64,000 nt of DNA from Sipunculus nudus (Eukaryota; Annelida; Sipuncula; Golfingiida; Sipunculidae). Positions 9,433 to 61,500 of this stretch are shown one piece after another. A model generated the notes under the pieces. It was not told the origin of the DNA and made no database searches. It was given only the letters and a program-made list of their open reading frames with translations. The position numbers and the translations under genes are program-made. The stretch spans positions 24,003,714-24,067,713 of the forward strand of contig CM049320.1 of the NCBI GenBank assembly GCA_026874595.1, written 5' to 3'. Within the stretch, counting starts at the first letter, position 1. Every line of letters starts with the position of its first letter.

Positions 9433-10535
9433 TTAACTTAATAATTGAAATACATTACCTAAACAATTTCTTAGCAGGTTCATCTGTGAGTTATATACCA
9501 GTCGACTTGACAAAAATTGTTGTGGTATGCACGGGAATTTTTGTCTCCTCGAATTCCAATTGGTTATGATATCTCTTATGAAATCTGCAAGTGTATTGTC
9601 ATCCTCGCCGTCGCACATAAATTCATCCTTTAATGTACCTTGAAGTTCATCCAAGATGCAAGCCAGTGGTGTTCCATGTCTTTCAATGTGTGGAAGACCA
9701 TATAAAGAAGGCTGCAAAGTGACCCAGGTTATGTTTTCCGTTTCCGAAATAAATAGCCACAAGGAAGCCTTCTTTCTCTGGTTGACATCACTCTTGGAAT
9801 TAATTTCAATTATTTTCCCCCTTGGCCCTAGGTTCTCCAATTCCGAATTTCTACTTCCTTCAATATTCTCCCTGACTGCATCAATCAAGAACGAAACATG
9901 TATTCCTAATGATTCTAGGCTATCAAAATGCATCTTTGTTCTGACGTCTTCCGCAGAAGGCGAAACAACGACAATAGAATTAAGTTTCATATTAGTAATA
10001 CTGAGAGGCGAACCTATGAAACCATGAACGAGTATAAACAGATGTCCATGCAGCTCTTCGTAAAAATTCATAAAAATGTTTCCAAGTGTTTAACACGGTA
10101 TGCCCTATGAAAAAGTTTGCCTTTGCTTTTGACAAATATGATTTGAATAATTCCATAATATTCTCCTTGCTGGAACGGCAGCTGACTTCACATTGTTGAG
10201 TTGTGCTGTTTATAATATTGCAAATTTTGTTGGGGCAGATTTTAATCAATTTCTTTGCCACTTCATATGTTTCAGGAAATAGAAAAAACATTTGTTTTAC
10301 TTTCTGGGAATTTATATTTTTTGCTTGTGTTGTATTGAGTCTACATATACTCAGGTTGGAATCTATACTTTTGAAAAATCTCTCTATTGTAACAAAGATT
10401 GATGATGGCCCAAGGTCTCCTGTAGAAGTGCCTCTTGATATGAAAATGACATCGTACTCCAGGCTGTGTTCCCATAACTGTTGTCAAACATATATTCATT
10501 CAAGAAAAGATATTATACTTCATACATTAGTCATT

Positions 10536-10571
<36 letters not shown>

Positions 10572-12025
10572 CCAATAATAGTTTTGTAGTCAAGCTATTG
10601 CTATTTTTTACTTGTTTTCTCAAGTAATAGTGTATTTTTACTCAAATAAAATACTGGCTATTATGAAATATGTTATTAAAGCATCAACTTTACCGTAGTC
10701 TATGATTAAACGATTTGCATGATGTTTTGACACTGTTATCCGTAAAAAAATATTTAACATATTTTGATTTCACATAAATTTACCTGAGAGGTTCCAGGAT
10801 GAAGATCAACTGGATTTTGGTTGTTTGTGTTAGTACAATGAAGAAAACAACTTCAATGAACATATTTTGAAAGCAAACCTTTTTAATCGGCCAACATTCA
10901 AATATAACATTTGTTCGCCTGTTTTAAGTCATCTCAGTGGAAGTAGATATAAAAATGTATAAAAATTGCATAAATAGCAATTAAAGTAAATAATAAGTGC
11001 AAATTTTATGATTTATCTGCACTATTTAATTATTAAACATTTATGTTTATACCCTCTTCAATGATTCTCGATGCCGGTAGATTACTAAGCATGGGTCTTC
11101 CATTTCATACGGACCAGTGTAATGATTATTACAACTCTGAAAGAAATATTATACTGGTTTATTTTTTAAAACAAATTTTGCAATAAAAATATTCGATTTG
11201 CTATGTAAAATTAAACTGAAATCGGGAAAATATCAACAGTAGTGTACAGTTATAAGTTTTTTTTATCTATTTAGTAACATTAATTGATTTGAAATTAGTA
11301 CATTAATCAGGATTTTGAGCAAAACATACCTTAAAATAGTTATTTCTGAATACAAAGCAAAATACGAAAAACCCAAGAACAGTTACACCGAGAACTATTC
11401 CGATTAATGTCCCCGCAACAGGTGTTGAGCCTGCCCAAAGAATAACATAGTATTATGTTCTATTCAGAGCTCTACCATGGTTGTATTCAGCATGAATGAA
11501 CACGTCCTCGCCTCGGAAATGCTTTATAGACGTAATTAAGGAACATGTTCTTTTATTTAATGATGTAGCATCAAAAGTCTATGTAACACTTACCAGTGGA
11601 CGGTGGAGATGGGGACGTTTCAACTGAAGAGATAATAGCTCAAGATAATTTCACAGTAATATATCTGCACGTTAGTTATAATGTTATTTTTTCACTCTTG
11701 AATATTAATTATCGCGCTTGGTTAACAGATATTTTATTTTCTAAAAAGTAATGATAAAGAATGTTTCACGTTTTGTTTATTCTTCTTGTTGTCCAACCAA
11801 AAATATAAGGAGTTTCTTATTTCTGAAAAAGTACATATTCACACCTCCATCACATAGCAGTTGCTTCTTCACAGAGAATGACGAATAGGTAATTCTCCCA
11901 TTCGTTAGAGAAGAACAACGAGGAGGAAGCTCACTTACACCTGCAAAACATGTTATAACAAGAAATAGGATAATTTGATTCAGCTTAACACATTTTAAAC
12001 AATTTAGAACTGTATAGACTTGCAT
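9433..12025 (-). pseudogene. Short transmembrane receptor with large unrecognised cytosolic domain, one frameshift
   Basis: Six exons on the minus strand chain in phase: 12025-11845, 11623-11594, 11430-11330, 11136-11053, 10809-10784 and 10463-9459. Exon 1 starts at an ATG and encodes a signal peptide (hydrophobic core IILFLVITCFAG), then about 30 residues with two cysteines (PPRCSSLTNG...LLCDG), at most half a sushi-like module. Exon 2 is a Ser/Pro/Thr stalk (ETSPSPPSTG). Exon 3 is a transmembrane helix (LIGIVLGVTVLGFFVFCFVF). Exons 4-5 are juxtamembrane. Exon 6 is a ~1 kb cytosolic exon starting LEYDVIF. It matches the plus-strand gene at 58926-59916: DLGPSS, LFPE, KAK.NFF.G, HGF, LQPS.YG.P, FLSS. 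A one-base excess in the A5 run at 10062-10066 (T5 in the coding sense) breaks the frame. Read-through past the 9459 donor gives a stop at 9433; no later exon was found. It may be a recent pseudogene or a sequencing indel. Confidence 0.7.
10537..10571. repeat. (AT)n microsatellite
   Basis: TA repeat in the intron upstream (minus sense) of the large cytosolic exon. Confidence 0.9.
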
Positions 12026-13540: not shown

Positions 13541-14034
13541 GAAAAAAAACAGAGAAAGATACTGATAAACTTGTTATAAACATGGCCAGAGAACTGTTAA
13601 ATGTTGACATTCAGCCCAACGATATTGATATCCCTCACAGAGTTGGCAAACCTGCACCACGAGGAAAATCCAGACCAATACTTGTAAAGTTTTTGTCTCA
13701 CAAAACAAAGGTAGCTGTACTTAAAAGGAAATCCCATCTGAAAATGGCAGATGAGGAGTCTAGGGGGATTTACATCAATGAGGACCTCACTCAAGTCAGA
13801 GTAGGAATGTTACACACTGCTCTAGGAATGAAAAGAGAGCAACTTATAACAGACTGTTGGACACATGATGGAAAGGTGTGTGTTAGGGATCACGGGTCAA
13901 AAGTTCATAAATTCAACAGCAGCGGTAAATTTTATTCATGGGTGCAGGTGTTACAACAAAATCCGCCAAAGCTATTTTCAGAGGCCATGCAGACCAATCC
14001 ACAACTAACATCGACACCAGGACAGGAAAGCTAG
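13541..14034 (+). pseudogene. LINE ORF1 remnant (RNA-binding RRM-like domain)
   Basis: The frame is open from about 13541 (TEKDTDKLVIN...) through an ATG at 13582 to a stop at 14032-14034. It shows the L1-type ORF1 signature: DIDIPHRVGK, RPILVKFLSHKTKVAVLK, then GIYINEDLTQVR. In living elements this protein coats the element RNA. The N-terminal coiled coil is missing, so it is 5'-truncated or the true start lies in lost sequence. A ~520 bp gap to the endonuclease frame holds no other recognisable coding sequence. Confidence 0.8.
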
Positions 14035-14555
14035 GTCTTTCTCCGTGAATATATGTGCCTGCCTGTATCATATTGCATTTTGTATTCAAGATTCCCGTAT
14101 TGCTATTGTGAGGGGTAATCATAAAAAAAAAAAACGGAGCCGGTCTCAACATATTATTTCCACAAATTTCGGTAATAAAAAATCAGTGTATTTATATCTA
14201 TTCTTAAAAGAATGCGGGTGACATTTGATTCTCGCTGAACCTTTACCTCCCGTATTCTTTATTCACTGATTAAAAAAAAAAATCTTCATTATCTGATTTT
14301 TATCAAATAGCGCCAAGTGTTATACATGCTTATATATAATTTTGTTATTACTATAAGCATGATTATTTTCTTCAGTTACTGTATTATCACGACAAAAGTT
14401 GATATTTTGAGATTATCCCAGATGTACCTGGTCAAGGGGATAGATATTGTTAACAAACCGAATATTTATGTGTGTGATTTTGTACGTAATATATGTTGCG
14501 GGCCATGAAAATATTCAAGATAACTGAAGCCGAATCTTTATGTTTAATTTTTCAG

Positions 14556-15270
14556 TATTAACGTTAAATGTCAGGGGAATAGGGAGACTGAAAAAAAGAG
14601 GAAATGTACAACTGGTTATTGGATAAAGGAGGAAACAACAGTGTTATTTTACTTCAGGAGACTCACAGTACAGAAAGTGTTATAACAGCAGGGACAAAAG
14701 AGTGGAAGGGAATTAGTTTTTTCTCTCACGGGACGAATTTATCTCGTGGTGTAATAACCCTTATTGGAAAGAATTTAGAAGTTAAAGAAATAAGTAAACA
14801 CGTTGATATATTAAGGTAGATACATAATAGTAAAAGCTCTTGATGAGGGCCATGGTTTTTTATTTATAAATACGTGAACACCTAATACAGAGCCAGAACA
14901 AGTTCGTTTTTACCAACATATATGGGATAAAATTAATTCCTTGCAAGCTGACTCTGCAATGAAGGTAATATGGGGAGGTGATTTAATGTCTGTCTGAATG
15001 AGCTTGATGCAGACGAGACAAGCTTTAAAACCAAAGTTAAATCTGTAAAACTGATTAACAATATAATGTCAGCGTTTGAATTAATTGACTTGTTTAGGAT
15101 AAGGAACCCAGAGGAACGTCTATACACTTGGAGATCAAAACCCCCTTTGCGGCAGCGCAGACTTGATTACATATTCTTAAATAGTGAGCTGAATGCCCAT
15201 GTTAAAAATATAAAAATTGCTCCGGCTATTCTGACAGATTATTCAGCCGTTGTTTGTCACTTTAACTCGA
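14556..15270 (+). pseudogene. LINE ORF2 AP endonuclease domain, frameshifted
   Basis: The domain starts with LTLNVRGIGRLKKRGNV, continues VILLQETHST (catalytic QETH), then frame changes to IWGGDLM (the GGDFN box, with the Asn lost) and RLYTWRS...RRLDYIFLNSEL. The final catalytic SDH is replaced by TDYSAV. Both the lost Asn and the lost His would disable target nicking. There are at least two frame changes (about 14820 and 14990). Confidence 0.85.
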
Positions 15271-15367
15271 TACCAGAACGGAATATGGGCCCTCACATTG
15301 GATACTTAATATATATTTATTAAAGGACCCTCTGTTTATAAGTAAATTTAAGGAGTACGTAAATGGT

Positions 15368-16690
15368 TTGAGGAACAAGGATAGAAATGATATGGGGGCA
15401 AAACAATGGTGGAAATATTTAAAGTTTAGAATGCAAGAATATTCTATTAAATTCTCTAAAGAAAAGCGGAAGAAAGAGAGGGAGGAACTGTCAAACCTTG
15501 AAAAGGCTCTGTATAATGCAGAGTTAAATCTATCAAAAAACAAAAAATCAATTCAAACAATATATAATGAAATTAAAAAGAAAATTGAGGAATATTACGA
15601 AAACTTAAATGCAGGACAGATAGTAAGATCACGTGTTGAATGGTTTGAAGAAGGGGAACGAAATACTAAGTATTTTTTTAATATGGCAAGGAAAAACAAA
15701 ACGAGAACAACTGTTAGGAAATTAATTAAGTCGGATAAAGAGGTAACAAGCTCCAAAGAAATTATGGAAGAAATAAGATTGTTTTACAAACAAAAGTATT
15801 CCAGAAAGACAGATACCAGTGAGAGTGAATGCTCTGATTTTCTTTCTAAAGTCAATGTTCCCCGTTTGTCTGAAAATGACATTCTAAGCTGCGAAGGTAC
15901 ACTTACAAAGAATGATATATTGATAGCATTAAAAGATATGAAAAACAATAAAACCCCGGGGAACGACGGTCTGCCGAAAGAATTTTACGTAACCTTTTTT
16001 TGATTTAATATGTGACGATTTATTAAATTGTCTTAATGAGTGTTTCAGAGATGTAGCTTTAACTACAAGTAAAAAACAAGCCGTTATAACTTTGATAGAG
16101 AAACAAGGCAAGGACAATAGACACCTGTCATCTTGGCGGCCAATAAGTTTATTAAATGTTGATGTCAAAATATTAAGCAAAGTATTAGTTAAACGGATAC
16201 AGACATTTCTTCCAAAACTAATTCATGAAGATCAGAGCGCATTTATAAAAGACAGGAGAATATCTGACACTAATCGTCTAATTTCTGATATTTTAGACTA
16301 CTGTAAATTACAAGATAGAAACACTAATATTTTTATTTTTATTTTTATTAGGACTTCGCAGCGGCCTTTGACTCCATCGATTATAATTTTCTTTTCGCCA
16401 CACTGGAGAGATTTGGTTTTGGACATGATTTTCTAACCTGGGTTCGTTTGTAACACTTTGACGTGGAAAGCTATGTGGTAAACAATGGATACACTACTGG
16501 CTATTTTAAATTAGAACTGGGAACCCGGCAGGGGGATCCATTGGCCCCTTATTTATTCCTGTTTGTCATTGAAATTTTGGCAATACTTGTTCGTCATTCC
16601 AGTTCGGTTAGAGGCATAGATATCAACGGCTATGAGATTAAACAATGTCTATTCGCTGACGACACAACATATTTTCTTAAAGACCATTTA
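15368..16690 (+). pseudogene. LINE ORF2 reverse transcriptase domain, frameshifted
   Basis: A long charged linker and RT0 region (VEWFEEGERNTKYFFNMAR) lead into NNKTPGNDGLPKEFY (RT block 1). After a frameshift near 16003 come WRPISLLNVDVKILSKVL and IHEDQSAFIKDRRI. Another shift near 16350 precedes FDSIDY. Then GTRQGDPLAPYLFLFVIEIL and the catalytic FADDTTYFLKD appear in order. All RT blocks are visible, but spread over three frames. The copy is truncated directly after FADD by an internal deletion at about 16688. Confidence 0.9.
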
Positions 16691-17592
16691 CAAGTATGGA
16701 ACAATAAATGTATCAGAGTCGACAAAAGACCAATTTTAATACGCACATAGCCAACCTAGGTATAAAGTACGTCTTTCAGGTGTTTAACAAAAATGTTAGG
16801 GTGAAAGATTTAAAAGATTTGGTTCCAATAGATAATCCCATGTATATAAAAACTTTTTTACCATGGCTATCAGTACAGAAAGCGATACCCACGAAACGGA
16901 AACAAGAAATATTTTTAAATAATATTCCAGATGAAATAGAATCCTATGAAGTGAAGAGTAATATTGTGATGGTAAACGAAACGAAAATTGATTTGGAAAA
17001 TGTGATGTTTAAGACTGTTTATTCGATGGTAATAAATAAAAAGCTATATGAACCAATTTGTAAAGAAAGGTTACATAATCTGTTAGGTGACCATTTTGAA
17101 TGGGATGAGGCAGTTAGTCATGTATATTGTACGTATCTGCGGCAATTTCATTATAGGGTACTATTTAATATTTTATCGGTGAATGAACAACTGTACAACT
17201 GGCGAATAATGGATAGTAAAAGATGTTCATATTGTTTTATTGAAGATGAGTCAGTAGTACATATATTCTGCGAGTGTCATGTGAGTAAAACCTTTTATAA
17301 TCAGCTTAAAACATGGGCAAAGAGTGTTGGAATTAATATGCCACGGTTGAGTCCAGCTTTAATTTATATGGGGTGTGATAAGAAAATCCCCTATAAGATC
17401 ATTGTAGATATTTAATTGTTGATTTTTAAGTTTCTGTTTTCCTATCGTGATAAGATAAATCCGCCATCTATTCATATATTAATGAAATGTTTGATTAGGT
17501 TAGAAAGATTGGAACGTAATGTTGCCGAAAAACACAAAAAGTCAGAAATACATCAGCAAAAGTGGAATAGTATATTGTTATCTTTGGGTTGA
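16691..17592 (+). pseudogene. LINE ORF2 C-terminal region with zinc-knuckle-like RVT motif
   Basis: The frame from 16708 gives IANLGIKYVF, FLPWLSVQKAIP, then WRIMDSKRCSYCFIEDESVV with HIFCECH, a CCHC-like arrangement typical of the zf-RVT end of L1-type ORF2. A TAA at 17413-17415 interrupts the frame, which continues in phase to a second stop (TGA, 17590-17592) through NPPSIHILMKCLIRLERLER. The nonsense codon is one more sign of decay. Confidence 0.8.
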
Positions 17593-17639
17593 TACATTTT
17601 TGATAATTCAAAAAGTTAAATGAAATAATCTCACATTTA

Positions 17640-18955
17640 CGGTATAACATTGTTGCTCTTGTATGCATGTAAATGTTTGTATTCTAAGTTCTGGGAGATG
17701 TCGATGATGAAAATGATAATAAATAAACAAATTGGTAAAGAAAATATTCTGAGACATCTGATACTTATACTTCACATTTTCCAAACCAATTTTCGTTTCA
17801 TTTACCATCACAATATTACTCTTCACTTCAAAGGATTCTATTTCAACTGGAATATTATTTTAAAATATTACTTGTTTCAGTTTCGCGGGTATCGCTTTCT
17901 GTACTGATAGCCATGGTAAAAACGTTTTTATATACATGGGATTATCTATTGGAACCAAATCTTTTAAATCTTTCACCCTACCATTATTGTTAAACGCCTG
18001 AAAGACGTACTTTATACCTAGGTTGGCTATATGCGTATTAAAAATTGGTCTTTCGTCGACTCTGATACATTTATTGTTCCATACTTGTTGTAAACAAATA
18101 TTAGCTATTGGTTCAGGATTACACATTGTATATGACGCCCATGACTGCAAACAGTGAAAATAAAAGGTAGGCAAATTTTTGCCAATATTAAACGGATCAA
18201 AATTTGTATCAACATATCTTAAACCACCAATGCCTCTCAGATATGTTTGGTATGACTGTATACTTTGTTTCTAATATATTCTTTAATCTTGCTATCTACA
18301 TTACTCTTTGACTTTCAATGATAGAAGCTATATCCAGCAATCCTATGCCGCCACTTTCTGTCTTACCAATCAATACTTCATACTTGATTTTAGGCTTTCT
18401 GCCGTACCATATAAAATCAACAACACAGCTTTTTATTCGCTAAACAAACTCTCTCGGTGGTTCAATTATATTAACGACATATAATAATTTTGAAATACAC
18501 ATGGATTTCAAGAGAATATTTCTACCAAAAATCATTAAAGATCTAATGTTACACATACTGAGAGTCGTTTTAATTTTGTCGTAAATACACTCAACATTAA
18601 GTGAATCGGATAACTTCAGGTTATATTGTGCCATATTCCTAATATTTTTATGCCATTTTTATATAAATTAACCTATTTAAAATCTTTGGTGCCAAGTGTA
18701 TGTTCTTTGTTTTTTCCCTTGTAGGCAGCTTCGCATTTATCATAATTAATCTGTACTGATTAGACTTTCCCAAATTTTTCTAATATATCCATAACCGATT
18801 GACTGAAAATCTTTAAGAAAATACGTTGTGTCGTCAGCGAATAGACATTGTTTAATCTCATAGCCTTTGATATCTATGCCTCTAACCGAACTGGAATGAC
18901 GAACAAGTATTGCCAAAATTTCAATGACAAACAGGAATAAATAAGGGGCCAATGG
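17640..18955 (-). mobile_element. Second copy of the same L1-like LINE, opposite strand, truncated at both ends
   Basis: On the minus strand 18955 to about 18813 is almost identical to 16552-16688 of the plus copy (PLAPYLFLFVIEIL through FADDTTYFLKD). The copy then retains about 0.7 kb (FQSIGYGYIRKIWESL..., FGRNILLKSMCISKLLYVVN, ...) that the plus copy has lost. It rejoins homology at QVWNNKCIRVDERP and ends matching at about 17797, after TKIGLENV. Beyond that (17620-17797) the sequence is different. Its 5' edge at 18955-18962 abuts the TATA-containing inverted repeat directly at GGATCC. Confidence 0.85.
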
Positions 18956-18962
18956 ATCCCGA

Positions 18963-19280
18963 TTGATACCGCTGTCAATTCCGAATGTCCATATTATACT
19001 GGTCCCGAGGTTTACTAGTCTGGATCCTGAAAATACAATAAACAGTCCTTAGCGTGCTTCGAGTGTCACGCCTTTATATAGAGCGATACGAGTCAGTTGA
19101 CCAGTTATGACCAGTTATTGTCTGCGCGTCGTCTTCTTTAGTCCTTGATAACACGGGACAAGGGTCCTGGCGAAATCATATTGCTAGACAAAACAGCGAA
19201 AACAGAAGTCACCAGAAAGACCAGACAGTCAGACCACAAGGGGGCATCCAACTATTCAGCCGCTTTCATAGGTGTATAGG
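18963..19280 (-). repeat. Left arm of ~310 bp inverted repeat with TATA box
   Basis: Reverse complement of 20505-20823 with about a dozen mismatches. In the minus sense it contains CTATATAAAGGCGTGACACT, CAGGATCCAGACTAGTAAAC and GGGACCAGTATAATATGGAC. The region 19281-20504 between the arms has no gene that I can support. Confidence 0.8.
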
Positions 19281-37899: not shown

Positions 37900-37975
37900 A
37901 CAGTGATTGGTCATTGTCCGTCGTCCTTCCGTCCCACCATCCGGCCGTCCGAGTGCCCGGCCATCCTTTGGGCTA
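37900..37975 (+). repeat. GTCCGTC-type minisatellite remnant
   Basis: CCGTCGTCCTTCCGTCCC followed by ATCCGGCCGTCCG and similar, in a GC-richer patch between units A and B. A like motif (GCGGTCCGGCCGTCCGGCC) occurs at about 47771. Confidence 0.5.
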
Positions 37976-39855: not shown

Positions 39856-41403
39856 AATGTGTGGACTAATCACCCAATCTGACCCCGTCGGACCCAATCA
39901 GACCCAATGGTACCCCATCTTACCCAATCGGACCCAATCGGACCTTGTTATATACAGATAACCCCTTATGAATCTTATCTTGTTTCAGATGATTGTCATA
40001 CAGTTGCATTCAGTAAAAAAAAACAACAAAAAAACATAAAGGACCATTCAGACATAATCGGACCCTGGAGTGAGAACACAATTTGTTTACTGATTTGGTT
40101 GAAGCAAAAATGCAAATTTTAGTCCCATAACAAAGACACACATACTTAAAGAATTGTATCCGGTGGAGAAAATCAAACGGCACAAAATATACAAATTCAT
40201 ATGACAGAAAATACAAATATTGGCACATGATATGAAACTGTGGAATATGCCCATCCGTTCCGGACTTACACAGCCATGACTTACACTGAAACGTTTTAAG
40301 GGGGAAAATGAGAAAACTTACTGTTTAAATTATATACATGACAAAATAAACAAAATTCATCACATAAAACTAAGACGTCAACTATTGCAGACATATGTGA
40401 ATGTGTTTTTGTGATGGGACTGAAATTTTTATGTTTTCTTCATTCGAATTTAAAAAAAAATGTGGTTACATGCCAACTTCTGATCGGGTCTGCTAGAGTC
40501 CGATTTGGTCTTTACTAAGTGGAATTGTTTTGGTGTATTCACAAATATGTATGTGTATTTAGAGGGATTTTTAATTTGTAAATTTATTTTTCCCGGTTTC
40601 AAATTTATAAGGAAGGATGTAACATGTTAATTCTCCCAAATCATTAAATATTTAAATGTTTGTTTCCTCCAGTGAAAAATATTTTTAAGGAATATCCTTA
40701 TATTCCCCAGGTCTAATTGGGTGTCCTTGGTTCCTCTTGGTCTTTATTCTCTTTTTGGTGGGTAATGTGCATATATGGAATGGGATTAGGATGTTCATTA
40801 ATTTCAAAACTATTTTCTAGATGGGAATTTCAATGTCAACATTTGAAATTAGAATATTCCTGTATACACTGGTTAACATTGGTTTATCCAGAAGTGAACC
40901 AGTTTGCTTTAGGATATCCTGAAATAAACAAGTTTACTATAATATCTGAATATTGAAATTTAGTTGTAACTAAGTGAACCAGCCTATTTTGGAATATCCT
41001 GAAATACACTGGTCTAATTTAGAATCTCTGAACCTTATTGATAAGATTTATTTTTGCCTGTTTCTGTTCAATTTACATAAGTTAAGTGCCAGGGTGACAA
41101 TGCAGTGTCTTCCTTAGTACATTGATACAGCTGAGTAAAAGTACAGATATTTCAATATTATATACATAAATGAGAAAATGAAACAGTCTAGGCAATGTAA
41201 ATTATATTCTGTGTATTGATTCAATAACTTAATTGTAATCACCATAATAACTATACAATATGCACAATTTACAATAAAAAATTATAACATGGTAACTAGT
41301 TTAGTTTGGAAAAACAGTGACTATTGGGTGCGAAGGGGAACGATTTGGTACGACTGATCGATTAGTCTGACCCAAGGAATATAATTAACATCATCACTTA
41401 AAT
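39856..41403. other. ~1.55 kb insertion in unit B
   Basis: In unit A, CCCTATTAACTCC runs almost directly into CATTAAGCATCAAAACC; in unit B the same two landmarks are separated by this segment. It starts with a degenerate 10-mer minisatellite (CGGACCCAAT, 39875-39945) and contains GAATATCCTGAAATA-type repeats at 40910-41010. The ends carry GGACTAATC and GATTAGTC, a possible short inverted end. It may be a non-autonomous transposon; no coding region. Confidence 0.6.
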
Positions 41404-42529
41404 AAACCATTAAGCATCAAAACCGTGTTTATGGCAGGTTATATGTTAAACGGCTCAAAGCAGAAGATTGTGATATAAGTCGATTTAAATGTAACTGAAA
41501 TCATCCAAAATTACAAGGCAAGCAAATATGACATGAATTTGAGTCTATTCATGGTACAAAATGTCTGAATAACACCCGCACTAACTTTCTTGACAACACA
41601 TCAGTTTTGTAAATACTTTTTATCATTATAACAACCATGACTATATCCGCATGTCGGAGCATAGCCTGGCACCCTTACATAAAGGCGATACAAAACCATG
41701 TATATAAATAAAACCCGGACATAGCTTCTATTTGTGATCGTCTGTGGGAGGTTTTAAGGTACTTATCAGATTTTATTTCATAACACAAATGGTATACTTG
41801 CTGTTTGAGTCCTCAATAAAGAAGACCAATTCATATACTAAGTTTTGAAATAAAGAATATTATATGAAAGGTTTTCGGATATTGTTTTTTTATGAATATT
41901 ATAATGTAATATCACAAAGTGCACACTGATGAATGGCCAATTACAATTACAATTACAATAAAGTTGTATATAAAAGCTTCTATATAACGTTTCATCTACT
42001 CTAAACACTGAATAGTCTGATTCCTACAAATAGTCTTCACCTCATCAGCCCACACCTCATGGAATAAAAAATTCACCAAGAGTCTGTAATCATATCTCAC
42101 TTTAATTCATTAGCTAATTGAATCGAATATAATGGGTACACTTGGTAAGTCTGGATAAAGCACTGCCACTCTCTGGTTCCTGTGAGCCTTAATAATTCCG
42201 TATTAGTGAACTGGGAGATTTATCGGTTGCTATATACATGCATACATACGTTGACCTTTATCTGATCTTTACTGATAAATGTTAATTTTGTTGTCTCTCA
42301 CTTATAAAATGCACGGAATATTAATAAACAAAGAAAGTAATAGAATTTAATATTCTGTTTTATGAAATTTTAAAAAAGAATAAATGTTTAGACATTTGTT
42401 GACTCTTGTTCCAATAAAATATGATAAATACCCTGTTGTTACATAAAATAGATTAACAGATTTATCTTAAACATTAAAGCCAGCTATTGAGTTGCCTTAT
42501 TTGTAGTAATTATACAATTTGTGCCTTAC

Positions 42530-42533
<4 letters not shown>

Positions 42534-42599
<66 letters not shown>
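42534..42599. repeat. (AT)n microsatellite
   Basis: TA repeat in unit B, equivalent to the CT/AT tract of unit A. It gives false Tyr-Ile open frames. Confidence 0.95.
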
Positions 42600-42600
<1 letters not shown>

Positions 42601-44149
42601 TAACTGTAGATATTCTCTGCTCGGGAAGGTTCTTGAAAGGTTACGGTGGAATGAGCTTGTTCATCAAAGACTTGAGGGAATCTTATTTTATTGTTACCGC
42701 AGAAACTAATTGAATATATGGACATTTTATTATTTATTGCAATGGGCATGTAACAGTGTATTTAAGAACAAGCGGAATTTCGTGAACTTTCTCTGTTTAT
42801 ACTTCTGTATATATATATATTTTATATATCATAAAATTGAGAACCGCCTATTTTTTTTAGTTTCTTTTAGTGAGCTGACTTTTCCCAGGTACCAGCGCAT
42901 ATCTCCACCTATTAAGAATTAGCTGTGTTTAATACCGCGCAGGCCTAGAGATGGCATCATGTGCACTAGCCCGCATTGATCTTTGGACCTGAAGTCCCGT
43001 TTTGTCACATGTAAAAGTAGGCCATGGTTATACAGCGGTATAACCACGTGTTACTCAAAGCAGTGAGGAGTTCCGCCTGTGTATTTGCTAGAGCATTGCA
43101 GCCCATGGTTTAACTTGTTTTGCAATAAATGCAGAGACGCCAACGTGCGATATATGACAGTGTGTAGATTATCGCTGTCGGTCGTTACCTTAAAGAATAC
43201 TTGAGGTGGGTAAGTACACATACGTGTCTCATACATTAAAAAAATCCAGTATCACGCAATGCTTTTTAGTCTTAGTATTCAGGATAATAGCTCGAGGTGG
43301 ACAAATGTATACAGTTTAACATCGTTCATGTGCAATAAGATCCTTTGCCAAATTTATATCTCTGGAAGTTCTCATTAGCTTCAGATTCCTAAATCTATAC
43401 AGTATAACTTCGCTTTTATGCCGTGAGATCTTTCGCCAAATATAACCTGATGTTATCATTACCTCCTGGTTCATCGAACATTTGCTGCGAATCTTTTAAT
43501 TTCTAATTAGATCTTTCGCCAAATATTAAATGATGTTCTGATTAGCTCCAGATAGACATTCTGTCTCTCCATTTATGACCTACTGTTCTGTTTTATTCAT
43601 ACCTGCATAGTGATCCACTTGTACATCAACCATCGAAAGCTTTGCAGCATATCATTAGATTTCAGCTGCGCCCCAATTATTTGTTATTATATAAACAAAG
43701 ATACATTGAATCATTCTCTTTTTATGTAGCTTCAATTATCTTTTCTAAATCAATGCTCATTCTCAGGCGACATTTCTGAGGGCCAACAAGAGAATTTTAA
43801 TGACTTCTGGAATTGTTTAATCGTTAAAATCAGTGATACAGCCATATAATTTATATTTATAAACACGTTTACGATAATGCTCTGTTGTATATATTTGCTT
43901 GTTTTTATGGAGTTTTAATTGTAAACGAAACCGTTCATGGTCTTGTTATTATAAATATATACATAAAGCACTTTAATTTATGAATAGGTGTTGATTGTGG
44001 AATAAATTTACACAAGATATTTAGATTAAGTTGACATGTATCTGATAGTTCTTGAGTACACAAAGTAAGTAAGAAAAAGGCATAATAAAAACATGTTAAG
44101 AGTCTCTTCGTCTGAGGTTCCCCATAAGGTATATGATTAACGGCAGTAT

Positions 44150-45610
44150 ATTAAGTAAACCATTAAGCACCCAAACAATGTTTATTATAGATATTCTTTG
44201 ATGCAGGTCATATTAGTTTCGTTCAGGTTATTTAAATAAAACTGAAAAATCAAGAAAATATAAGGCGAGCAAATATGACATATCTTTGATTTTAGTCGCT
44301 ATACACGGTGTTTCTGTGACACCCGCACTTTCGTGACCACACCAATTCTTTGTAAATACTTTTATTATAACATCCAAAACTGTATCCGCCTGTCGAAGCC
44401 GAGCCTGGCAGCCTGATATAATACCGATATTAAGACATGTATATAAATATAACCCCGACATAGCTTCTCCTTGTGCAAACATGTGTTAGACCTTGAAAAA
44501 AAAACCAAAAGTTCACAAATAGTCAGCAGTATAAAGAGTATTATACCTGAGATGTGTTCTGATGTTCGTTTCTTATATGAATATTCTAATGTGAGACATG
44601 TATCACACAGCGCACCCTAATAAATGCCAAATGTTAATTTCATTTACACATGAAATGTTATTTAAAAACTCCTCTGTTTTATTTTTTCCTATATATTTCT
44701 ATAAAACTCTATAAACTTCTATAAGTTTTATTTACTCTAGACACTGAGTAATCGGATACATATTCCTATGAATAATCCTACATTGGGCATCTTTAAAAAC
44801 AAAACCATATGCATATATTTAGTTGTATATATAGTATTAAACATGAGTTCGGATATTCGTTTCTTTTATGAATATTCTAATTAATATGACTCAGCGCATA
44901 TTGATAAAAAGTCAAAATTTCTATTTCGTTTCCATATGAAATTTTATTAAAAACGTCAATATGAATTTTTACCTTCTCTAGACATTGAATAGTCTGATAC
45001 AGATTCCTAGATATAGCCCAACATTGAACCAACCAATTCCTCGATGAATCTCAAATTTACTATCAATATGTGACAATATCTTACCTTTATTCTCACGCTA
45101 ATTATACAGAATATAACTGCCACACTCTTTAAGTCTAATAAAGACACTGTCGCCCTTTGGTTTGTTATGCAAGTTCATGGATGCTAAATGTTATCTAGAT
45201 TGGGTTTTGATAATATCGCACAGGTACATAGGGAATATTATATGTAGCTATATACTGATGTACACTCTTAAATACGTTGACTGGTGATCTTAACTGCAAT
45301 ATATTAAGTGTATTGCCCTTCCCTAAATACACTGTACGGAATACTTATGAAAGAGAGTAATAGAATTTAATATTTTCTTGTGCAAATGTGAAAAAAGAAT
45401 AAACGTTAGGACTCTTGTTCTATTTAAAGACAATAAATACTCAAGTGAGAAAAAAAAACAACAAAAGATTTATCTTTTGCATTAAACATGAAAGCCAGCT
45501 AATCACCAGCAATATTTGTAGAAATTTTATAATTAAAGACTCACTACGCGTATATATTGATGACTGTAGCAATCTGTGTTAAAAAAGGTTCTTAAGACAC
45601 CCCCGCGACG
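44150..45610. repeat. Segmental duplication, unit C (partial)
   Basis: Third, shorter copy: ACCATTAAGCACCCAAACAA (44160), GAGCCTGGCAGCC (44400), CCGACATAGCTTCTCCTTGT (44456), then TTCGGATATTCGTTTCTTTT (44850), TAATAGAATTTAATATTTTC (45357), AAGCCAGCTAATC (45490) and GACTGTAGCAATCTGTG (45563). The first modules of units A and B are absent. The 43560-44150 spacer shows nothing else. Confidence 0.75.
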
Positions 45611-46199: not shown

Positions 46200-46370
46200 A
46201 CGGGAACTCTCGGCCCCAGAGACACTCGTCCCAGAGACACTCGGCCCCAGCGACTCTCGGCCCCAGAGACACTCGGCCCCTGAGACGCTCGGTCCCAGAG
46301 ACACTCGGCCCCTAGTCAGCAGGACCCAGCGACACTCGGCCCCGTCCGGTCGCCGCCCCCAGAGACTTTG
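46200..46370 (+). repeat. 16-bp minisatellite, left (inverted) array
   Basis: About nine degenerate copies of CGGCCCCAGAGACACT, then CTAGTCAGCAGGACCCAGCG and CCGTCCGGTCGCC. It is the reverse complement of 47245-47435, with only a few differences. Confidence 0.9.
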
Positions 46371-46976
46371 TCGATATGCATGGCGATCAATGCATTAGTT
46401 GTTCTAATGTTCTAAGCTTTGATCAATACCGAGAAAAACGGATCAACACCGAGGTAAATTTAACGGTGACAATTTCTCATTTTATATCAGTTATTTCTTG
46501 ATTCATTTATATAAATACTACAGCGTATTATAAAAAAAAATATGAACACCGATTATATTTGGCTCCTACAACGTTTATTGCATCCATTTATTTGGCGTGA
46601 CCACTACAGGAAAATGGTTCAGCACCTTTTATTTAACCATCTATAAATTTTTTATAAGTCATATACAAAGATAATTTTATGATATCAGGGCTACACGAAG
46701 ATATGTTTCACGAGAAAGGACGGTCCGTGCCGAGGCCTGGTCCCAATATTTTTTTTGGGGTAGGCCTATGTTAATGCGGCCTTCAGGAAACAGTTGAAAT
46801 GAACGAACACATAAGCTTACGAAAACTAATAATTTAAGAGGAGACATAACACCTGGCCATGCATTTTCTATTGAGTGTAAAATACATATAATTTGTGGAA
46901 TATGATAAGAAAAATTTTATGGATTATTATACAGATATTGTTTCAGAAATAAGCATGGTTTTAATTTTTATATACA

Positions 46977-46978
<2 letters not shown>

Positions 46979-47043
<65 letters not shown>

Positions 47044-47053
47044 ATATATATAT
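46979..47053. repeat. (AT)n microsatellite
   Basis: TA repeat with one TTTA interruption, inside the spacer between the two opposed minisatellite arrays. Confidence 0.95.
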
Positions 47054-47244
47054 TGTATGTGCTATATTTTTTATTTTATGGAAAATTTAACTTTAATTGC
47101 TTCGTGGCGTTCAACTAGGGCCTACATGCAGGCCACCACGACTAAGGAACTTCTCCAATTCGAGTGGCTCATCAAGTGAGGGGATAACAATCCAGAAGAG
47201 ATAACTACGGGAAGGTTGTTTTCTGAGGGGTTTCGCGAGGCCAG

Positions 47245-47435
47245 TATTGGACCCGATGCCCTTGGCCGAGCGTCTCTGGGGGCGGCAACCGGACGGGGCC
47301 GAGTGTCGCTGGGTCCTGCTGACTAGGGGCCGAGTGTCTCTGGGGCCGAGCGTCTCTGGGGCCGAGTGTCTCTGGGGCCGAGAGTCGCTGGGGCCGAGTG
47401 TCTCTGGGACGAGTGTCTCTGGGGCCGAGAGTTCC
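47245..47435 (-). repeat. 16-bp minisatellite, right (inverted) array
   Basis: GGCCGAGTGTCTCTGG units in the order of the left array when read on the opposite strand, including the unique CTGCTGACTAGGGG and CAACCGGACGGGGCC segments. The two arrays form the arms of a ~1.2 kb inverted repeat. Confidence 0.9.
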
Positions 47436-47789
47436 TGTATTCGTGTGGCTAACTAAGCCCTAATTACACCGGACGCAGACAAGTACACATGCCAATATAG
47501 CATTACACCGGACGCGGTTGACTGGAAATTCGCAGAAGTCATTGTCACAATAGTCAATATCACTAGTTTCGGTGATGAGAATATATGAAGATTATTTTTT
47601 GTCCCTTGCTAAATTAATCAGGTTCGTTTGTGTTGCTTTCAAATGTCTTCGTTAGACGTGTTTTATGCAATGATCGGCGGCTGTTTTGTCATTCCACTTA
47701 TTCAGCCTCTGCATGGGTGGGTCGATTTTTTTGGCTTATAGGTTCAGCTTACTATAAGTTATCTGAGCTATAGCGGTCCGGCCGTCCGG

Positions 47790-54747: not shown

Positions 54748-55627
54748 ATGGCTGTGACTGGATTCGTCCTTTTTGTAATAGCTGCAGCATGTTGCACTGT
54801 GGTTGCAAGTAAGTGATATTAACCATAAAATAGTATGTACTACTTAAGATACTTTGGTCCTTGATGTCCTGAAACCGTGAATTTTAAAGGTTATTGTTAC
54901 TCAGCAGTGACCTTGCCGATAGGAGAATAAACAATTTTTAATGTACACATCATTTTGGGTTATTCTTGCGTGTTTTATCAATTGCATGGAGGTTACCACC
55001 GAAAACAGCCGGAATGGCTGCACGTCGCTTGGTGATCTGGTCATTGAACCAGGAATGAGGTCTATTGTGAATGTGTATAAAACCTGCTGTCAGTAACGGA
55101 TTTAAGCATGTTTGGCCAGACTCGCTTGCATGGGTAGAAAATTTACAAACGTGACTTTCACATACACCTGTCAAAAATCACAGGTGAAGCATACGCATTA
55201 TTAGCATATTTCTCATAGGGAGGTCGATTTTAGGGACTGTCTCGTTGTATGTTTATATGGTAGGCAGAATGCAATACCCCGGTCGTGAGTTTGATTCACT
55301 TAGTATTTGAGACAGGGCGCTGTGATAACAATAAAAATATAAAGTAATCAGTCTAGTATCTTCAAAAACTGGAATGTTCCCGTGTCCCATTCGGGTTCTC
55401 ATATGTAAACATTCATCTCTGACCAGGTCATTATGGTAAAATTCCGATGTATGGATTCCTTGCCCCGAGCAAAGGTTCACAAAATACATGTAAAATATAT
55501 TTGTACAATCTACTTGAAACAGTATCCCACTGAATGGCTATAATTTATTTTAAAAATGATTGAGCCATCATCTTATTCAATTCATCCCCAATCCTGATAA
55601 AAGATCCGGTACCGGGTTTATCAGCTA

Positions 55628-55685
<58 letters not shown>

Positions 55686-57320
55686 CTTTAGAAAGTCATA
55701 GATCCGTTTAATGTTGATAAGTGTATTAATTAAAGTCAGTTAAACGTTGTATAATATAACTGAGGTATCTGTTTTGTTAGAGCCAACATACGACTCAAAC
55801 TGTCCGTCGATGACAACCTGGGGAAAAGCTCAACAATGTTGTATGAAAAAAGGACAGAACCTTCCTGACAGGAGGAATACTTCTGTGATAGACAAAGTGA
55901 AGAAGGACATGGATGATAGGGGTTTAAATTCCATCTGGACGATCCAACGAGAAATTACGGCTAAACGATGGATATGGTTGGACGGCACTATTTATAGCGA
56001 GTACCACCTTCCTGATAGCAGAAAACCATGCTTTTTTAATGGTTTGGTGACAAAAGGCCTTGAAAAATCAGAGATACTGCGATCTTAAATTTCAGATATT
56101 CTTAGTTAAATTTCATCTTTTTCATTGAGTCTGGTTTGTTTATTTAAAGCCCAGGCTCTTTCACATATAGCACATAGCGTTTCTAAATCAAGTATTTTCT
56201 GTGTTTCAGGAGGCGCAGTACAGGAGAGTTCGCCAACCAACAGCGAAACAGATTGTGCATACTTCGACCTACATAGAAATTCTTTCTCTAGTGCAAATTG
56301 CTTGGTTCCTCAGCTTGGGCATATTTGCAGACTGGAAAGTAAATGTTTCATTATTGCCCATATCGATGAAATCGTGCTTGAGGATTAAAATGTGATAGGA
56401 ATTCTGATAAACCTAGACTTTCCAAGAATGTGAAAGGTCTTTTATGTTGATTATTATTGAAAGCAATATTGTGATGAATTTAAGATCGATGGACTTAAGA
56501 AGTTTTATGCCAATTCACAATCAATAAACCGCAATTACCTGAAACTCGTTCAATTAGTTATTATTTTCCCTTGTTGACAAAGAAAGAAATAAACCCGTTT
56601 TAAATATTTTTTTTCTTTGAAGACTGCACTGGTTGTAATATGGGGCGCGTAGCTCCCTTTGCGTGCGTTCAAGAGGGCGCTACCTGTTATTTCCACTTTT
56701 GTCTCCAATTGACTTGGCCAAAAGCACAGGCGCATTGTAAGAGCTTTAGACAGGTGGCTTTGGACCTCCCGATACTTAATGAGCAGTCTCAGGTGACCGC
56801 CCTTGCAAGTGACAAATGGCACTGTAGTAAATTCTGGGTTGGTATGAGGAAAACTGACACATTTGTTATTGCAGGTGAGTGGTTTCAATAAAAAATGCGG
56901 TTTAGTATCGAAAGTACTTGTACTTAGACCTGATCCATATATAAGACAGTTTATAAAACTTAATATCAGGTTGATTAATAAATGTTAAAAGCCAAAAGAC
57001 AAAGAACATAAGATGACATAAGATGGACGATCGGTAGCAGTTTTGGATTTATTCATTTTAAATTTGTATTTCCATCAATGTTCCTACATCAACTTGGTTT
57101 CCTGGTTACTGGTTGTTTTTTATTGATAAAAATATCCCGACCTCTCTACATCCCCGCAGCAAAAATACCATTCATAGGGTTAGTACAGAAACCTTTCCTA
57201 TACCAGCAGATCAGCCTGGTGATAGCCCAAGTGACATACCACATAGATGTGTACAGCTTGAAAAGAATAGGTACACGCTGACGTCGTGTGACAACTCGAC
57301 AGCCTGGGTATGCGTAGGAG
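54748..57320 (+). CDS. Receptor ectodomain: signal peptide and two C-type lectin-like domains
   Basis: Exon 1 is a signal peptide (MAVTGFVLFVIAAACCTVVA). Exons 2-3 form a lectin-like domain: CPSMTTWGKAQQCCMKKGQN at its start, WIWLDG in the middle, and DCAYFDLHRNSFSSANCLVP with GHICRLE at the end. Exons 4-5 form a second: TCYFHF, LTWPKAQAHCKSF, LPILNEQSQVTAL, FWVGMRK, then PHRCVQLEKNRYTLTSCDNS and WVCVG. The spacing of Cys and Trp fits the C-type lectin fold. Canonical calcium/sugar motifs (EPN or QPD, WND) are absent; domain 2 has QPGD. Sugar binding is therefore doubtful and protein ligands are possible. All introns here are phase 1, as is typical of shuffled extracellular modules. The start of exon 5 could instead be 57160 or 57178; only 57189 keeps frame with the strong exon 4 donor. 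Confidence 0.8.
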
Positions 57321-58452
57321 GTAAAGCATGTCACCCACATCTTTTCCTTGTCCCAATTTGCAACTGAAGAAAAAAAAACCGCCCGTCATAAAAACATTTA
57401 TCATAGAATACGAGTACGATGGATAAATGATAATATGAGTAATTTAATAAAAAGTTCGTATCACTTGGTTCCCTATCTTGAATGTTGTGGCCCTTTACCT
57501 TTTGAGAAATCCGATCGTAATATTATTGTGATACATTCTACATAGTTTGATCGTATATTTCAGATCCTGCAAAAAATCTAGAACAAACAGGGGATGAGAC
57601 ATCTAGTAGTAAGTAATTGACCAATACAGTGATATAATCAAAACATAACTTCACTGCTATCGGCTATGTTGACCACGTCATTTCAATCAAGTTATCATTT
57701 TAGAAAACTCGTGTCTTAATTGTATAAGCATCCTGATTCAACCTTCTAGATGTTAACTGAGATAAGCTTATACGGAATGAACAATATTATTAATTCACCT
57801 TGTAATTGATTAAACCGGTTAATGGTATTGAAAGATTTTTAGTTTTTTTTCCAATCTTTGCTTTATACTTATTTCAGACTCAGGAACCACGATCGTCGTA
57901 GTTATCGTGATTGTATTGTTGATCGTGGGTGCCCTGGTAACATTGCTTATCTTCAGAAAAAAACTATCGAGGGTAAATAAACATTTTATGACGTTTCATC
58001 ATTTTGGGTCTCGCTAGGCATTTCTTCACGAGTAATATACAAAGATTGTGATGTAACTTAATATAACATTCAATGAAACTGCATTCTATATACCATACAA
58101 AATAAGCAAATACCCCTTAACATACATTGTAGATCCTCCACACGAATAGAAAGGGAGAAGAGGAAATCGGCCTATGTAAGTAAAGCATGACGTCAGAAAC
58201 ACAGTTAAGGATGAAAAGTTCATCCCTTCCAATCATATAAGCACAACAACAGTCGAAAGTTAGTTGTGAATGTATATCCTGTATTCCTTGTATTTGTGCA
58301 AGTATTTTAAATCTCATACAAATACAAAAAGTAAATACCACACAAACGGAGCAAATTTACTATTGTTCCACACATTCAATAGTTTCCCTTCTTGAGTCTA
58401 TGAAAACGTTATATAGTACACTCGTAAAGAAGGTGAAGACAACGATAAGGTT

Positions 58453-58518
<66 letters not shown>

Positions 58519-61500
58519 CACGGGTGCGTTATATATAAATTATATATCGCATACATAAATATATATACTGAGTAAATTAGTTTGCCACACCGACATAAGG
58601 TGATTGTAAAATTTTAATAACTTATGGTACCATGATTATTTTTTTAAGGTGAGACTACATCAGAACAACAGGTAAGCGATTTTATCATACATCCCATTAA
58701 ACCCTTAGTAGGACACCTTACAAATTGAAGTGAACCTTTCCATTGATGCCTTTGTGAATGCATTAAGAAATGTCTGATTCTTGAAAGATTTTGTTTGAAA
58801 TATCATTTCTACGGGTCTGTTTTTTCAAACATGACCACATCTGTGAGTTTACACTGTTTGGTATATTATTTGTCTTCATGGATAGTAAAATTATAACATT
58901 TTACTAGTGCTGTCTATTTTCATAGGCTTGGATGCATGACAGGTTCTACGATGTGATATTTGTGTCTGCCACAGAAGAAGAGTGGGACTTGGGACCATCA
59001 TCGGCTCTTTTTATAATGGAGAAATTGTTAACGACAGTGGACAAAAGTTTGAACACCTGTGTTCTCAATTATGATATGGCTGCTTTTATAAAGCCTAATA
59101 TGGTGTCAAATATCATCATACTTTTCCCCGAAAATTTTAAATTTCTCCTCAATCTGATAAAAGTGTGCCCAGAAAAGATTTCTAATGTGATAACTGATAG
59201 TGTAGAGAACTGTATTAAACTGTACCCAACGAAGAAAGCAAAGGATTTCATTCATTATTTGAAAAAGGCAAAGGTGAACTTTTTTGTCGGAAGTCATATC
59301 TTGGACAATTGGGAGCGCTTTTCCATAGATGTTGCAAGTACAAATTTTGAACTCTATGTTCCAATCCATGGCTTTGTGCAGCTGCCCCGTTTTGATGCTG
59401 ACCCGAAACATTTTTCTATAATTATAGACTTGATCGCTACCAAGTTTTCCGTTAAGGTAGGGGTCATCTTAGAAAAATTAAACCAATTTGTTCTTGAAAA
59501 AAACTCACGTGCAACAGCACTTGTAAATAAAGAGGGATATCGGCACCTGCAACATTTTGCAAACATTGACCTCAGGATAATCTCTACTAAGGCGGACACC
59601 GTGGACTTTAAATCAAACGCAATATGGTTCATAATAAGTGACACCAATGAACTTACCTGGACCATGCTTCAGCCCAGTATGTACGGCATTCCTCAGATCG
59701 TCGGTGACCATACTTCAATGGCCGATGAACTAGATGGCATTCCATCAAACATCTTGGAGCAGGTAGTTGTACAAAGCGACCGTATTGAAGAGAGATGTGA
59801 GACCATTCTGCAAAAATGGAACAAAATGGAATCTTGTTTTCAAACGCTTCCAATGATGTTTCTTTCAAGCCCGAAGATATACAGATCCCAAAGGAAATTC
59901 CTTGTTCATTGTCTTGGTTAGTTTGGCAGTATTAGTAGTTACTTTTGTGCATACCATTATTCCCATTTACAGCAGATACTTTATAGTGGGCAAAAACAAG
60001 ATTAGATTAATATGTTACATTTTTAAACTTTTTGATAAGTATAAATATTCGTACGTGTATTAAAAATTAGGTAAGTGTTCTAAAGCACCGAAAGGAATTT
60101 TTTTTCAAAATAATAAAGAGCAAAATCATATACATATTTTTTGCGTTACAGGGACACGGATCGCCGATTTAGAAATCCAGCTGTTAAAACATGAGCCGTC
60201 GGATATCAATTTAGAAGGCATGAGTATGAATTTACTTTCATCTTTACCCATTTTCCCTCGGAAAAAAGGTGCTGAGAAAGACTATTTGGGCAAAAAGATT
60301 TACGATTCGATCACCAGGGATCTTGGAAAGGTAATATGTGCAAAGAGAGGAAACGAAGAGAATAGTATTGACTTGATGGTCTACCTAAAAGACGAAAAAG
60401 CCCGCGGGGACTTTGTTGAGAGTATAAACAGCGACAAGCTGGGCATGGCGTTATTGAAAGTGTTTCTTCTCAAGAAGAAAGACCTGCTTCCAAATCAAGA
60501 TCCTGAGGAACTAGGAGTGGAAATAAACGTAACATTTCAGGAAGATGCTTCCATGGATATAGGTAACTGCTTGTTAACCAACATGTTAAAGGAATATCCG
60601 CGCCAATTGCCCTCTGATGTGTTACGCGTAATCTTTTATGCTATTCAGATACATCTATAAGACGCTGAATATCTTATTTGTATGTAAATTATTAGAATAA
60701 AGTTTAAAATAAAAACATTCTTCACTGCAGTGACGAAGAAGACGTGGCTGAGAAACCCTTTGGATGTATGTTTAAATATTAGATAAGTATAACAAAATAA
60801 TAATGCCTAGAATACGCATACTATATAAGAACTGTTTTGAAGGATGATCAAACTTTTTTCTAGTAATCTAAATTTTAGCATTCATAACACCGACCGTTCA
60901 GCGTTTAAGATTAATGTGGTAGCCATTTAATTAATTGTGCGTTTTTTTTAATTAAATACTTTATAAACTTTTATTAGTTCGTGCATATTCAAATAAATTA
61001 CTGAAGAAGTCATGTATAACCATAATGGCACGAATAAGTGATCCTTTTGGTTAAACAACAGGTCTTCCAGATATTGGAGTAATGAATAACAAACATTTGG
61101 AGATGAACTTGAATTAAAATCGATCCAAATATCTCTATTCCTAAATGGAATAATGCATGATACCTTGCTTTCAAATTAAAATTATAATTTCACCATGTGA
61201 ATATTATCTAAAATGCGTACAGTTGCAATAATACATAAACATAAAACAAATACTGACAGGCACTTATTATGCAAAGGGTATATGGCCAAAAGTTCTATCT
61301 ATTCCACATCATGTGTTCATATTTTCAGGGAACTAGTAATATCCTTCACAAAGCAGCAGAAGCTGGAGCCTACGAAGTTGTCAAAAACTGTGTCGAAGAT
61401 AAGCGACAATACGTTGACCTGAAAGACAAGGTTGTTCAAGGATCTTTTTCTAATTTTCCAACATGCACCCGCGAACTTGTAGAAAAGATGTATCCTAATG

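What the first reader, a model, noticed from the sequence alone, without database searches (positions are those of the whole stretch)
9433..60660. Two opposed receptor genes share an undescribed cytosolic domain but have unrelated ectodomains
The ~1 kb exons at 10463-9459 (minus) and 58926-59916 (plus) encode colinear proteins with shared YDVIF, DLGPSS, LFPE, LIK.CP.KI, KAK.NFF.G, HGF, LQPS.YG.P and FLSS. Each sits behind the same series of stalk, helix, juxtamembrane and micro exons. One gene has only a ~30-residue ectodomain, the other has two lectin domains. This pattern suggests a receptor family in which a conserved signalling half is combined with different sensing halves. The domain as a whole matches no family I can name.
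Basis: partly seen in the sequence, partly recalled or inferred. Interest (0 to 1): 0.9.

Follow-up and report, generated by a model that had tools for sequence, protein, structure and literature searches.

The report
Lectin receptors with glycosyltransferase-derived tails
One of the two genes encodes a lectin-type surface receptor whose inner half looks like a worn-out sugar-transferring enzyme joined to a death-signalling adaptor and ankyrin repeats, and the same genome reuses that inner half many times behind a different front end, which suggests a modular immune receptor family.

Summary
The exon pair is real and homologous (E 3e-41). The domain is not undescribed: it is a divergent relative of the GT4-conflict glycosyltransferases (PF20706). 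The family consensus matches at E 8.6e-6 over 285 aa; the family profile finds the genome's own GT4-conflict gene at 32.8 bits, best of 237 decoys 1.3. The EX7E acid pair is absent in 27 of 27 aligned members, so it is probably a pseudo-enzyme.

Gene B (54748 to beyond 64000) reads in one frame through 19 exons, 1056 aa: signal peptide, two C-type lectin domains, membrane helix, GT4-like, TRADD-N-like, ankyrin repeats. Gene A is frame-broken, lacks the last two parts as far as read, and its 'unrelated' ectodomain is a remnant of the same last lectin exon.

At least 38 copies lie on 10 chromosomes. Of 30 loci read, 18 have a CARD upstream; lectin-membrane ends were seen only in the C15 cluster. 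So modularity holds genome-wide, not from this pair. GT4-TRADD-N proteins are published (PMC8195603), said to stop at cnidarians, cephalochordates and hemichordates; the lectin-receptor and CARD forms and this (probably molluscan) host look new. TRADD-N membership is likely, not proven.

The parts
54748..54808 (+). Gene B exon 1, signal peptide MAVTGFVLFVIAAACCTVVA
   Evidence: GT donor, phase 1 out; signal peptide by eye
55781..56041 (+). Gene B, first C-type lectin domain, part a
   Evidence: In phase; Lectin_C on the joined ectodomain E 1.5e-9, two stretches; donor GTTTGG is weak
56210..56338 (+). Gene B, first lectin domain, part b
   Evidence: sibling match in L056
56623..56874 (+). Gene B, second lectin domain, part a
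   Evidence: 50% identical sibling exon in L056
57189..57320 (+). Gene B, second lectin domain, part b (acceptor could also be 57210)
57564..57608 (+). Gene B stalk exon
   Evidence: Phase 1-1
57878..57972 (+). Gene B transmembrane helix exon
   Evidence: Mean hydropathy 3.53 over 19 residues; phase 1-0
58133..58175 (+). Gene B juxtamembrane exon
58649..58671 (+). Gene B short exon
58926..59916 (+). Gene B degenerate GT4-like domain
60152..60562 (+). Gene B TRADD-N-like domain (exon C)
60731..60765 (+). Gene B linker exon
   Evidence: Phase 1-0 joins exon C to the ankyrin exons
61329..63816 (+). Gene B seven phase-0 ankyrin exons: 61329-61430, 61709-61807, 62032-62154, 62602-62670, 62929-63027, 63304-63402, 63718-63816; the array goes on beyond the window
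   Evidence: Ank_2 E 1.6e-41; continuation in L057
11845..11940 (-). Gene A ectodomain exon, remnant of the last lectin exon
11594..11623 (-). Gene A stalk exon
11330..11430 (-). Gene A transmembrane helix exon
   Evidence: Mean hydropathy 2.80 over 19 residues; related helix in L058
11053..11136 (-). Gene A juxtamembrane exon
9459..10477 (-). Gene A GT4-like exon, frame-broken between about 10073 and 10041
   Evidence: nearest relative L005, 69% and 54% identical in its two pieces

Best explanation
Gene B is a type I transmembrane immune-type receptor: signal peptide, two C-type lectin domains, one membrane helix, then a cytosolic tail made of a degenerate GT4-conflict glycosyltransferase domain, a TRADD-N-like domain and a long ankyrin array. 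It belongs to a large family in which many other members carry a CARD in place of the lectin-membrane half. The lectin-type genes form one supported clade in one chromosomal cluster, as if the front end was exchanged once and the gene then duplicated and partly decayed there. Proposed working: the ectodomain binds a ligand outside; clustering brings tails together; the TRADD-N-like sheet and the ankyrin repeats change partners and recruit signalling proteins, possibly the CARD-bearing siblings through their shared middle; the GT4-like domain, having lost the EX7E acid pair, serves as scaffold or binding module rather than enzyme. Shown here: exon order, frames, homologies, a lower bound of copies, clustering of the lectin type on the tree, loss of EX7E. 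Inferred: one mRNA, the folds, TRADD-N membership, which way the front ends were exchanged, ligand, partners, immune role.
For: One frame through 19 exons with GT-AG borders. Lectin_C E 1.5e-9 and ankyrin E 1.6e-41. GT4: consensus of 27 rows to PF20706 E 8.6e-6; L019 to PF20706 E 1.9e-4; 17-row profile to L023 32.8 bits against 1.3 for the best decoy, L023 itself PF20706 E 1.5e-46. TRADD-N-like: consensus of 25 rows has PF20694 as top hit, E 0.0053; the tiny-Ser motif is GS or SS in 22 of 25. Order: exon C downstream in 25 of 30 loci, CARD upstream in 18 of 30. Lectin, membrane and GT4-like exons in the same order in siblings L004 with L056 and L005 with L058. Lectin-type clade 100/99.
Against: Gene B's GT4-like exon alone hits neither Pfam, NCBIfam nor PDB; the consensus (25.4 bits) and L019 (21.0) stay under the PF20706 cut-off of 26. 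PF20706 rings in 14 of 14 control prokaryotes, so it marks GT4s in general. TRADD-like_N stays under its cut-off (17 of 23.7 bits), an hhalign comparison with the genome's own DEDD2- and NCOA6-like TRADD-N exons was null, and direct PF20694 search found only those two. Three of four lectin-type GT4-like exons are broken. Gene B's exon C has NS, not GS, at the motif.
Confidence: 0.62

Rival explanations
1. The GT4-like domain is still an enzyme that glycosylates invader or host molecules when the receptor is triggered, as PMC8195603 proposes for GT4 effectors.
For: Family relation to GT4-conflict; the paper predicts an effector role. The domain is kept open in 25 of 31 loci.
Against: The second Glu of EX7E is absent in 27 of 27 aligned members and the first in 26 of 27. 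L023, which matches the family fully, also lacks the second Glu, so a different active site cannot be excluded.
Confidence: 0.12
2. The lectin-membrane exons and the GT4-like to ankyrin exons of gene B belong to two transcripts or two genes, and the receptor is a reading artefact.
For: No transcripts were available; two ectodomain borders are weak or ambiguous. Most other copies have no lectin upstream.
Against: All phases join; the same order recurs in the diverged siblings L004/L056 and L005/L058; no CARD exon was found upstream of lectin-type copies.
Confidence: 0.1
3. The lectin-type cluster is a decaying set of relics and gene B is merely the last open copy, without function as a receptor.
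For: GT4-like exon broken in 3 of 4 lectin-type copies against 3 of 27 others, one-sided p 0.016 on a sample picked by search; decayed lectin exons in L063.
Against: Gene B is open over 1056 aa and 19 exons despite only 38% identity to its nearest relative's domain. Some breaks may be assembly errors.
Confidence: 0.1
4. The exon encodes a new fold and the GT4 matches are spurious.
For: Nearly all single members are silent in Pfam: of 15 scanned one hit GT4-conflict; profiles are silent in PDB.
Against: Consensus, L019 and L023 results agree and put the same motif in register; the next exon's best family is TRADD-like_N, the partner published for GT4.
Confidence: 0.06

Closest known systems
GT4-TRADD-N proteins of cnidarians, cephalochordates and hemichordates (Kaur et al. 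2021, PMC8195603; passages seen)
   Same: A GT4 domain directly before a TRADD-N domain, then a repeat array; lineage-specific expansion; likely immune role
   Different: There leucine-rich repeats follow and the text I saw names no lectin-membrane or CARD front end with GT4; here ankyrin repeats, a lectin-TM or CARD front end, and a degenerate GT4. The paper says no other metazoans have the pair.
Crassostrea virginica receptor-like TRADD-N proteins (same paper)
   Same: Ectodomain, membrane helix, cytosolic TRADD-N and, in some, ankyrin repeats
   Different: Cysteine-rich ectodomain and a DED before the TRADD-N; no GT4 mentioned
L023, the GT4-conflict gene on C8 of this genome
   Same: Matches the family profile over its C-terminal 135 residues and is followed by an open frame that resembles exon C
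   Different: Full PF20706 match (E 1.5e-46), no lectin or CARD seen in the stretch read
C-type lectin membrane receptors
   Same: Type I membrane protein with tandem C-type lectin domains
   Different: No EPN, QPD or WND sugar-calcium motif in the ectodomain; I recall no such receptor with this tail

Membership tests
GT4-conflict (PF20706) | Score over the curated cut-off (26 bits) | tested here: not met
   Gene B exon no hit; L019 21.0 bits; consensus 25.4 bits, E 8.6e-6. L023 159.6 bits
GT4-conflict (PF20706) | EX7E acid pair of retaining GT4 enzymes (motif recalled) | tested here: not met
   Second Glu in 0 of 27, first in 1 of 27
GT4-conflict (PF20706) | Homology to members of the family | tested here: met
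   32.8 bits on L023, next of 237 decoys 1.3; the match covers L023's C-terminal 135 residues only
GT4-conflict (PF20706) | GT-B fold of two Rossmann-like halves | not testable with these tools
   Structure prediction switched off
TRADD-N (PF20694) | Score over the curated cut-off (23.7 bits) | tested here: not met
   Consensus top hit at 17 bits, E 0.0053; 13 single members no hit
TRADD-N (PF20694) | Tiny residue plus Ser in the turn between strands 2 and 3 | tested here: inconclusive
   GS or SS in 22 of 25, Ser in 23 of 25; gene B has NS. That it lies in that turn is my reading; no structure
TRADD-N (PF20694) | Direct relation to known TRADD-N domains | tested here: inconclusive
   25-row profile on the frame behind L023: 10.1 bits, 0 of 1639 scored shuffles, but an 18-row profile failed, that frame has no TRADD-N Pfam hit, and DEDD2- and NCOA6-like exons gave nothing
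C-type lectin domain (PF00059) | Score over cut-off | tested here: met
   38.9 bits, cut-off 22.6, two stretches
C-type lectin domain (PF00059) | EPN or QPD with WND sugar-calcium motif (recalled) | tested here: not met
   None in the ectodomain of gene B
Ankyrin repeats | Score over cut-off | tested here: met
   Ank_2 141.2 bits, cut-off 27.3
CARD (PF00619), sibling loci only | Score over cut-off (23.9 bits) | tested here: met
   Joined exon pairs: L010 39.2, L009 28.5 over; L014 23.7 just under

The most novel reading that the evidence does not exclude
A membrane receptor that pairs a lectin reader outside with a converted glycosyltransferase inside, the latter kept as a binding module for sugar-nucleotides or glycans, so that one molecule reads sugars on both sides of the membrane and signals through a TRADD-N switch to CARD-bearing siblings that share its middle.
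Probability: 0.15. Interest if true: 0.85.

Novelty: new variant of a known kind. Interest (0 to 1): 0.6.

Why it matters
It ties a little-known immune module (GT4 with TRADD-N) to the cell surface and to CARD, and shows a front-end exchange traceable within one genome. It extends a published distribution said to stop at cnidarians, cephalochordates and hemichordates. It offers a testable case of an enzyme fold turned into a signalling part.

Tried and rejected
Single-sequence searches of the exon in Pfam, NCBIfam and PDB gave nothing of weight, nor did exon C in PDB; a 2-row and a 15-row profile of the exon and a 13-row one of exon C gave nothing of weight in PDB. Scans of viral contigs, prokaryote contigs and phages found no relatives. 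I first took the stop at 60660 and the nearby AATAAA as the gene's end; splice phases and siblings overturned that. I first treated L004 as intact; its frame changes near the start of the GT4-like exon. A mitochondrial route to the host's identity failed: of ten COX1 matches, the one I translated reads like a bacterial one to me, and the contig fetched for another is 112 kb long. Upstream reading of L015, L016, L018, L066, L068 and L070 showed no clear front-end domain by eye and was not scanned.

Papers: of PMC8195603 I saw passages from four 'find' calls, not the whole text, figures or supplements. Others I saw only as search listings. That the lectin-receptor and CARD forms are not in print rests on six searches of an open-licence library.
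Full report
Where it is. The window is C15:24003714-24067713 of an unnamed 1.43 Gb, 153-contig assembly. A muscle-myosin exon from it ranks eight distinct sequences that I recall as squid and scallop above the first vertebrate one, by about 2 to 4.5 bits, so a mollusc is likely but not shown.

Observation. The two exons are homologous: 38% over residues 2-132 and 28% over 143-331, joint E 3e-41. Exon B is one open frame of 331 aa. Exon A is in two frames, the change lying between about 10073 and 10041. Ectodomain, stalk and helix exons of the two genes have the same phases; juxtamembrane and short exons do not align.

Gene B. With GT-AG borders the exons join into one frame of 1056 aa in 19 exons. 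Two ectodomain borders are weak or ambiguous (donor after 56041, acceptor 57189 or 57210). Pfam: Lectin_C E 1.5e-9 in two stretches, ankyrin E 1.6e-41. The helix averages 3.53 over 19 residues. Ankyrin repeats go on past the window (L057).

What the 331-aa domain is. Alone it is silent in Pfam, NCBIfam and PDB. In its own genome it has 24 matches. A 15-row alignment has eight invariant columns. Of those 15, one, L019, hits PF20706 GT4-conflict: E 1.9e-4, residues 101-315, 21.0 bits against a cut-off of 26. The consensus of 27 rows has that family as its only hit under E 1: E 8.6e-6, 25.4 bits, residues 43-327 on model 70-372 of 385. A 17-row profile scores 32.8 bits on L023, a C8 gene that PF20706 recognises at E 1.5e-46. 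The next best of 237 other targets (200 shuffles of L023 and 37 E. coli K-12 proteins) scores 1.3. Five of those E. coli proteins I labelled GT4; none is among the rows printed, so the profile finds the conflict-type GT4 and not GT4s at large. The match covers L023's C-terminal 135 residues and lays ltWtrLqPvlhGiPqiv on the FGCLGLTALSAGIPTLI stretch, the EX7E neighbourhood. The second Glu is absent in 27 of 27 and the first in 26 of 27. PF20706 rings in all 14 control prokaryotes, so the safe statement is 'degenerate GT4'.

The next exon. Exon C follows the GT4-like exon in 25 of 30 loci read; of the five without, L014 has one just beyond its stretch (L050). Thirteen members singly hit nothing of weight in Pfam and PDB is silent. 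The 25-row consensus has PF20694 TRADD-like_N as top hit, E 0.0053, 17 bits against 23.7. The tiny-plus-Ser motif described for TRADD-N (PMC8195603, passage) is GS or SS in 22 of 25 and Ser in 23 of 25; gene B has NS. An open frame behind L023 scores 10.1 bits on this profile, and none of 1639 scored shuffles did (best 4.8). Against: an 18-row profile failed the same test, that frame has no TRADD-N Pfam hit, and comparison with this genome's two direct PF20694 matches, by eye NCOA6 and DEDD2, was null. I call it TRADD-N-like.

Family. Three queries give 38 distinct places on 10 chromosomes, some of them fragments and the total a lower bound. Of 30 loci read, 18 have a CARD second-half exon upstream; ten of these helped to build that profile. 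Pfam gives CARD on three joined pairs: E 4.8e-5, 1.5e-6, 7e-10. The opposite strands gave one weak CARD match, E 0.05. Of nine loci not used for any profile, six have CARD and six have exon C. Three of the 30 are lectin-type (gene B, L004, L005). For nine the front end is unknown, some because little upstream DNA was held. In a tree of 29 exons the four lectin-type rows (with gene A) are one group, 100/99, and the 18 CARD rows lie on the other side of that branch; two long branches (L018, L019) are unsure and seven rows are unlabelled.

The lectin cluster. L004, about 85 kb left of the window, has both lectin domains and a membrane helix upstream. L005 has a first-lectin exon and a helix like gene A's. 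L063, next to the window, has lectin exons, one with stops. Gene A keeps the last lectin exon and helix; no exon C or ankyrin exon turned up in 9.4 kb of window plus 8 kb beyond. Broken GT4-like exons: 3 of 4 lectin-type (gene A, L004, L005), 3 of 27 others (L016, L022, L054); one-sided p 0.016 on a sample picked by search.

Mechanism. PMC8195603 sees TRADD-N as a switch between constant and variable parts and GT4 as an effector. Loss of EX7E argues against turnover here, so I favour scaffold or sensor. Ligand, clustering and recruitment of CARD siblings are inference; the ectodomain lacks EPN, QPD and WND, so a sugar ligand should not be assumed.

Known or new. GT4-TRADD-N and receptor-like TRADD-N proteins are known (PMC8195603). 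A C-type lectin receptor carrying them, a CARD, GT4-like, TRADD-N-like, ankyrin family, and their presence in this host are not in the passages I saw nor in six searches of the open library. I rate it a new variant of a known kind.

Noticed in passing
30014-32934 (+): A second ankyrin array with no GT4-like or TRADD-N-like exon found beside it in the window; its repeats are up to 48% identical to gene B's later repeats, so it may be the remains of another copy.
   Followed up: partly
L063 2912-5408 (C15, just left of the window): Lectin exons of a further family member on the minus strand, one with an internal stop; its cytosolic half was not read.
   Followed up: partly
L023 and L059 (C8:48629000-48635142): A single-exon GT4-conflict gene (PF20706 E 1.5e-46) in the animal genome, followed by an open frame that looks like TRADD-N to me though Pfam does not say so.
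   Followed up: partly
G000 contigs C60-C89 and C123: Ten COX1 matches lie on small contigs, nine on C60-C89 with near-equal scores; the one translated looks bacterial, as if several related symbiont or contaminant strains were assembled with the host.
   Followed up: no
13543-19048: Fragments of a non-LTR retrotransposon (ORF1-like and reverse-transcriptase-like frames on both strands), by eye, between the two genes.
   Followed up: no
34202-45407: Dispersed 100-700 base repeats, about 73-85% identical, of unknown nature.
   Followed up: no
46206-47452: Short repeats coding, in one minus frame, for a PETLGPSDSRPQRHSA-like low-complexity peptide.
   Followed up: no
L009 3-515: A transposase-like open frame, by eye, right upstream of a CARD-type copy, in keeping with the transposon links claimed in PMC8195603.
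   Followed up: no
L060 (C4) and L061 (C17): The only two direct PF20694 matches in the genome; by eye the ordinary NCOA6 and DEDD2 genes.
   Followed up: partly
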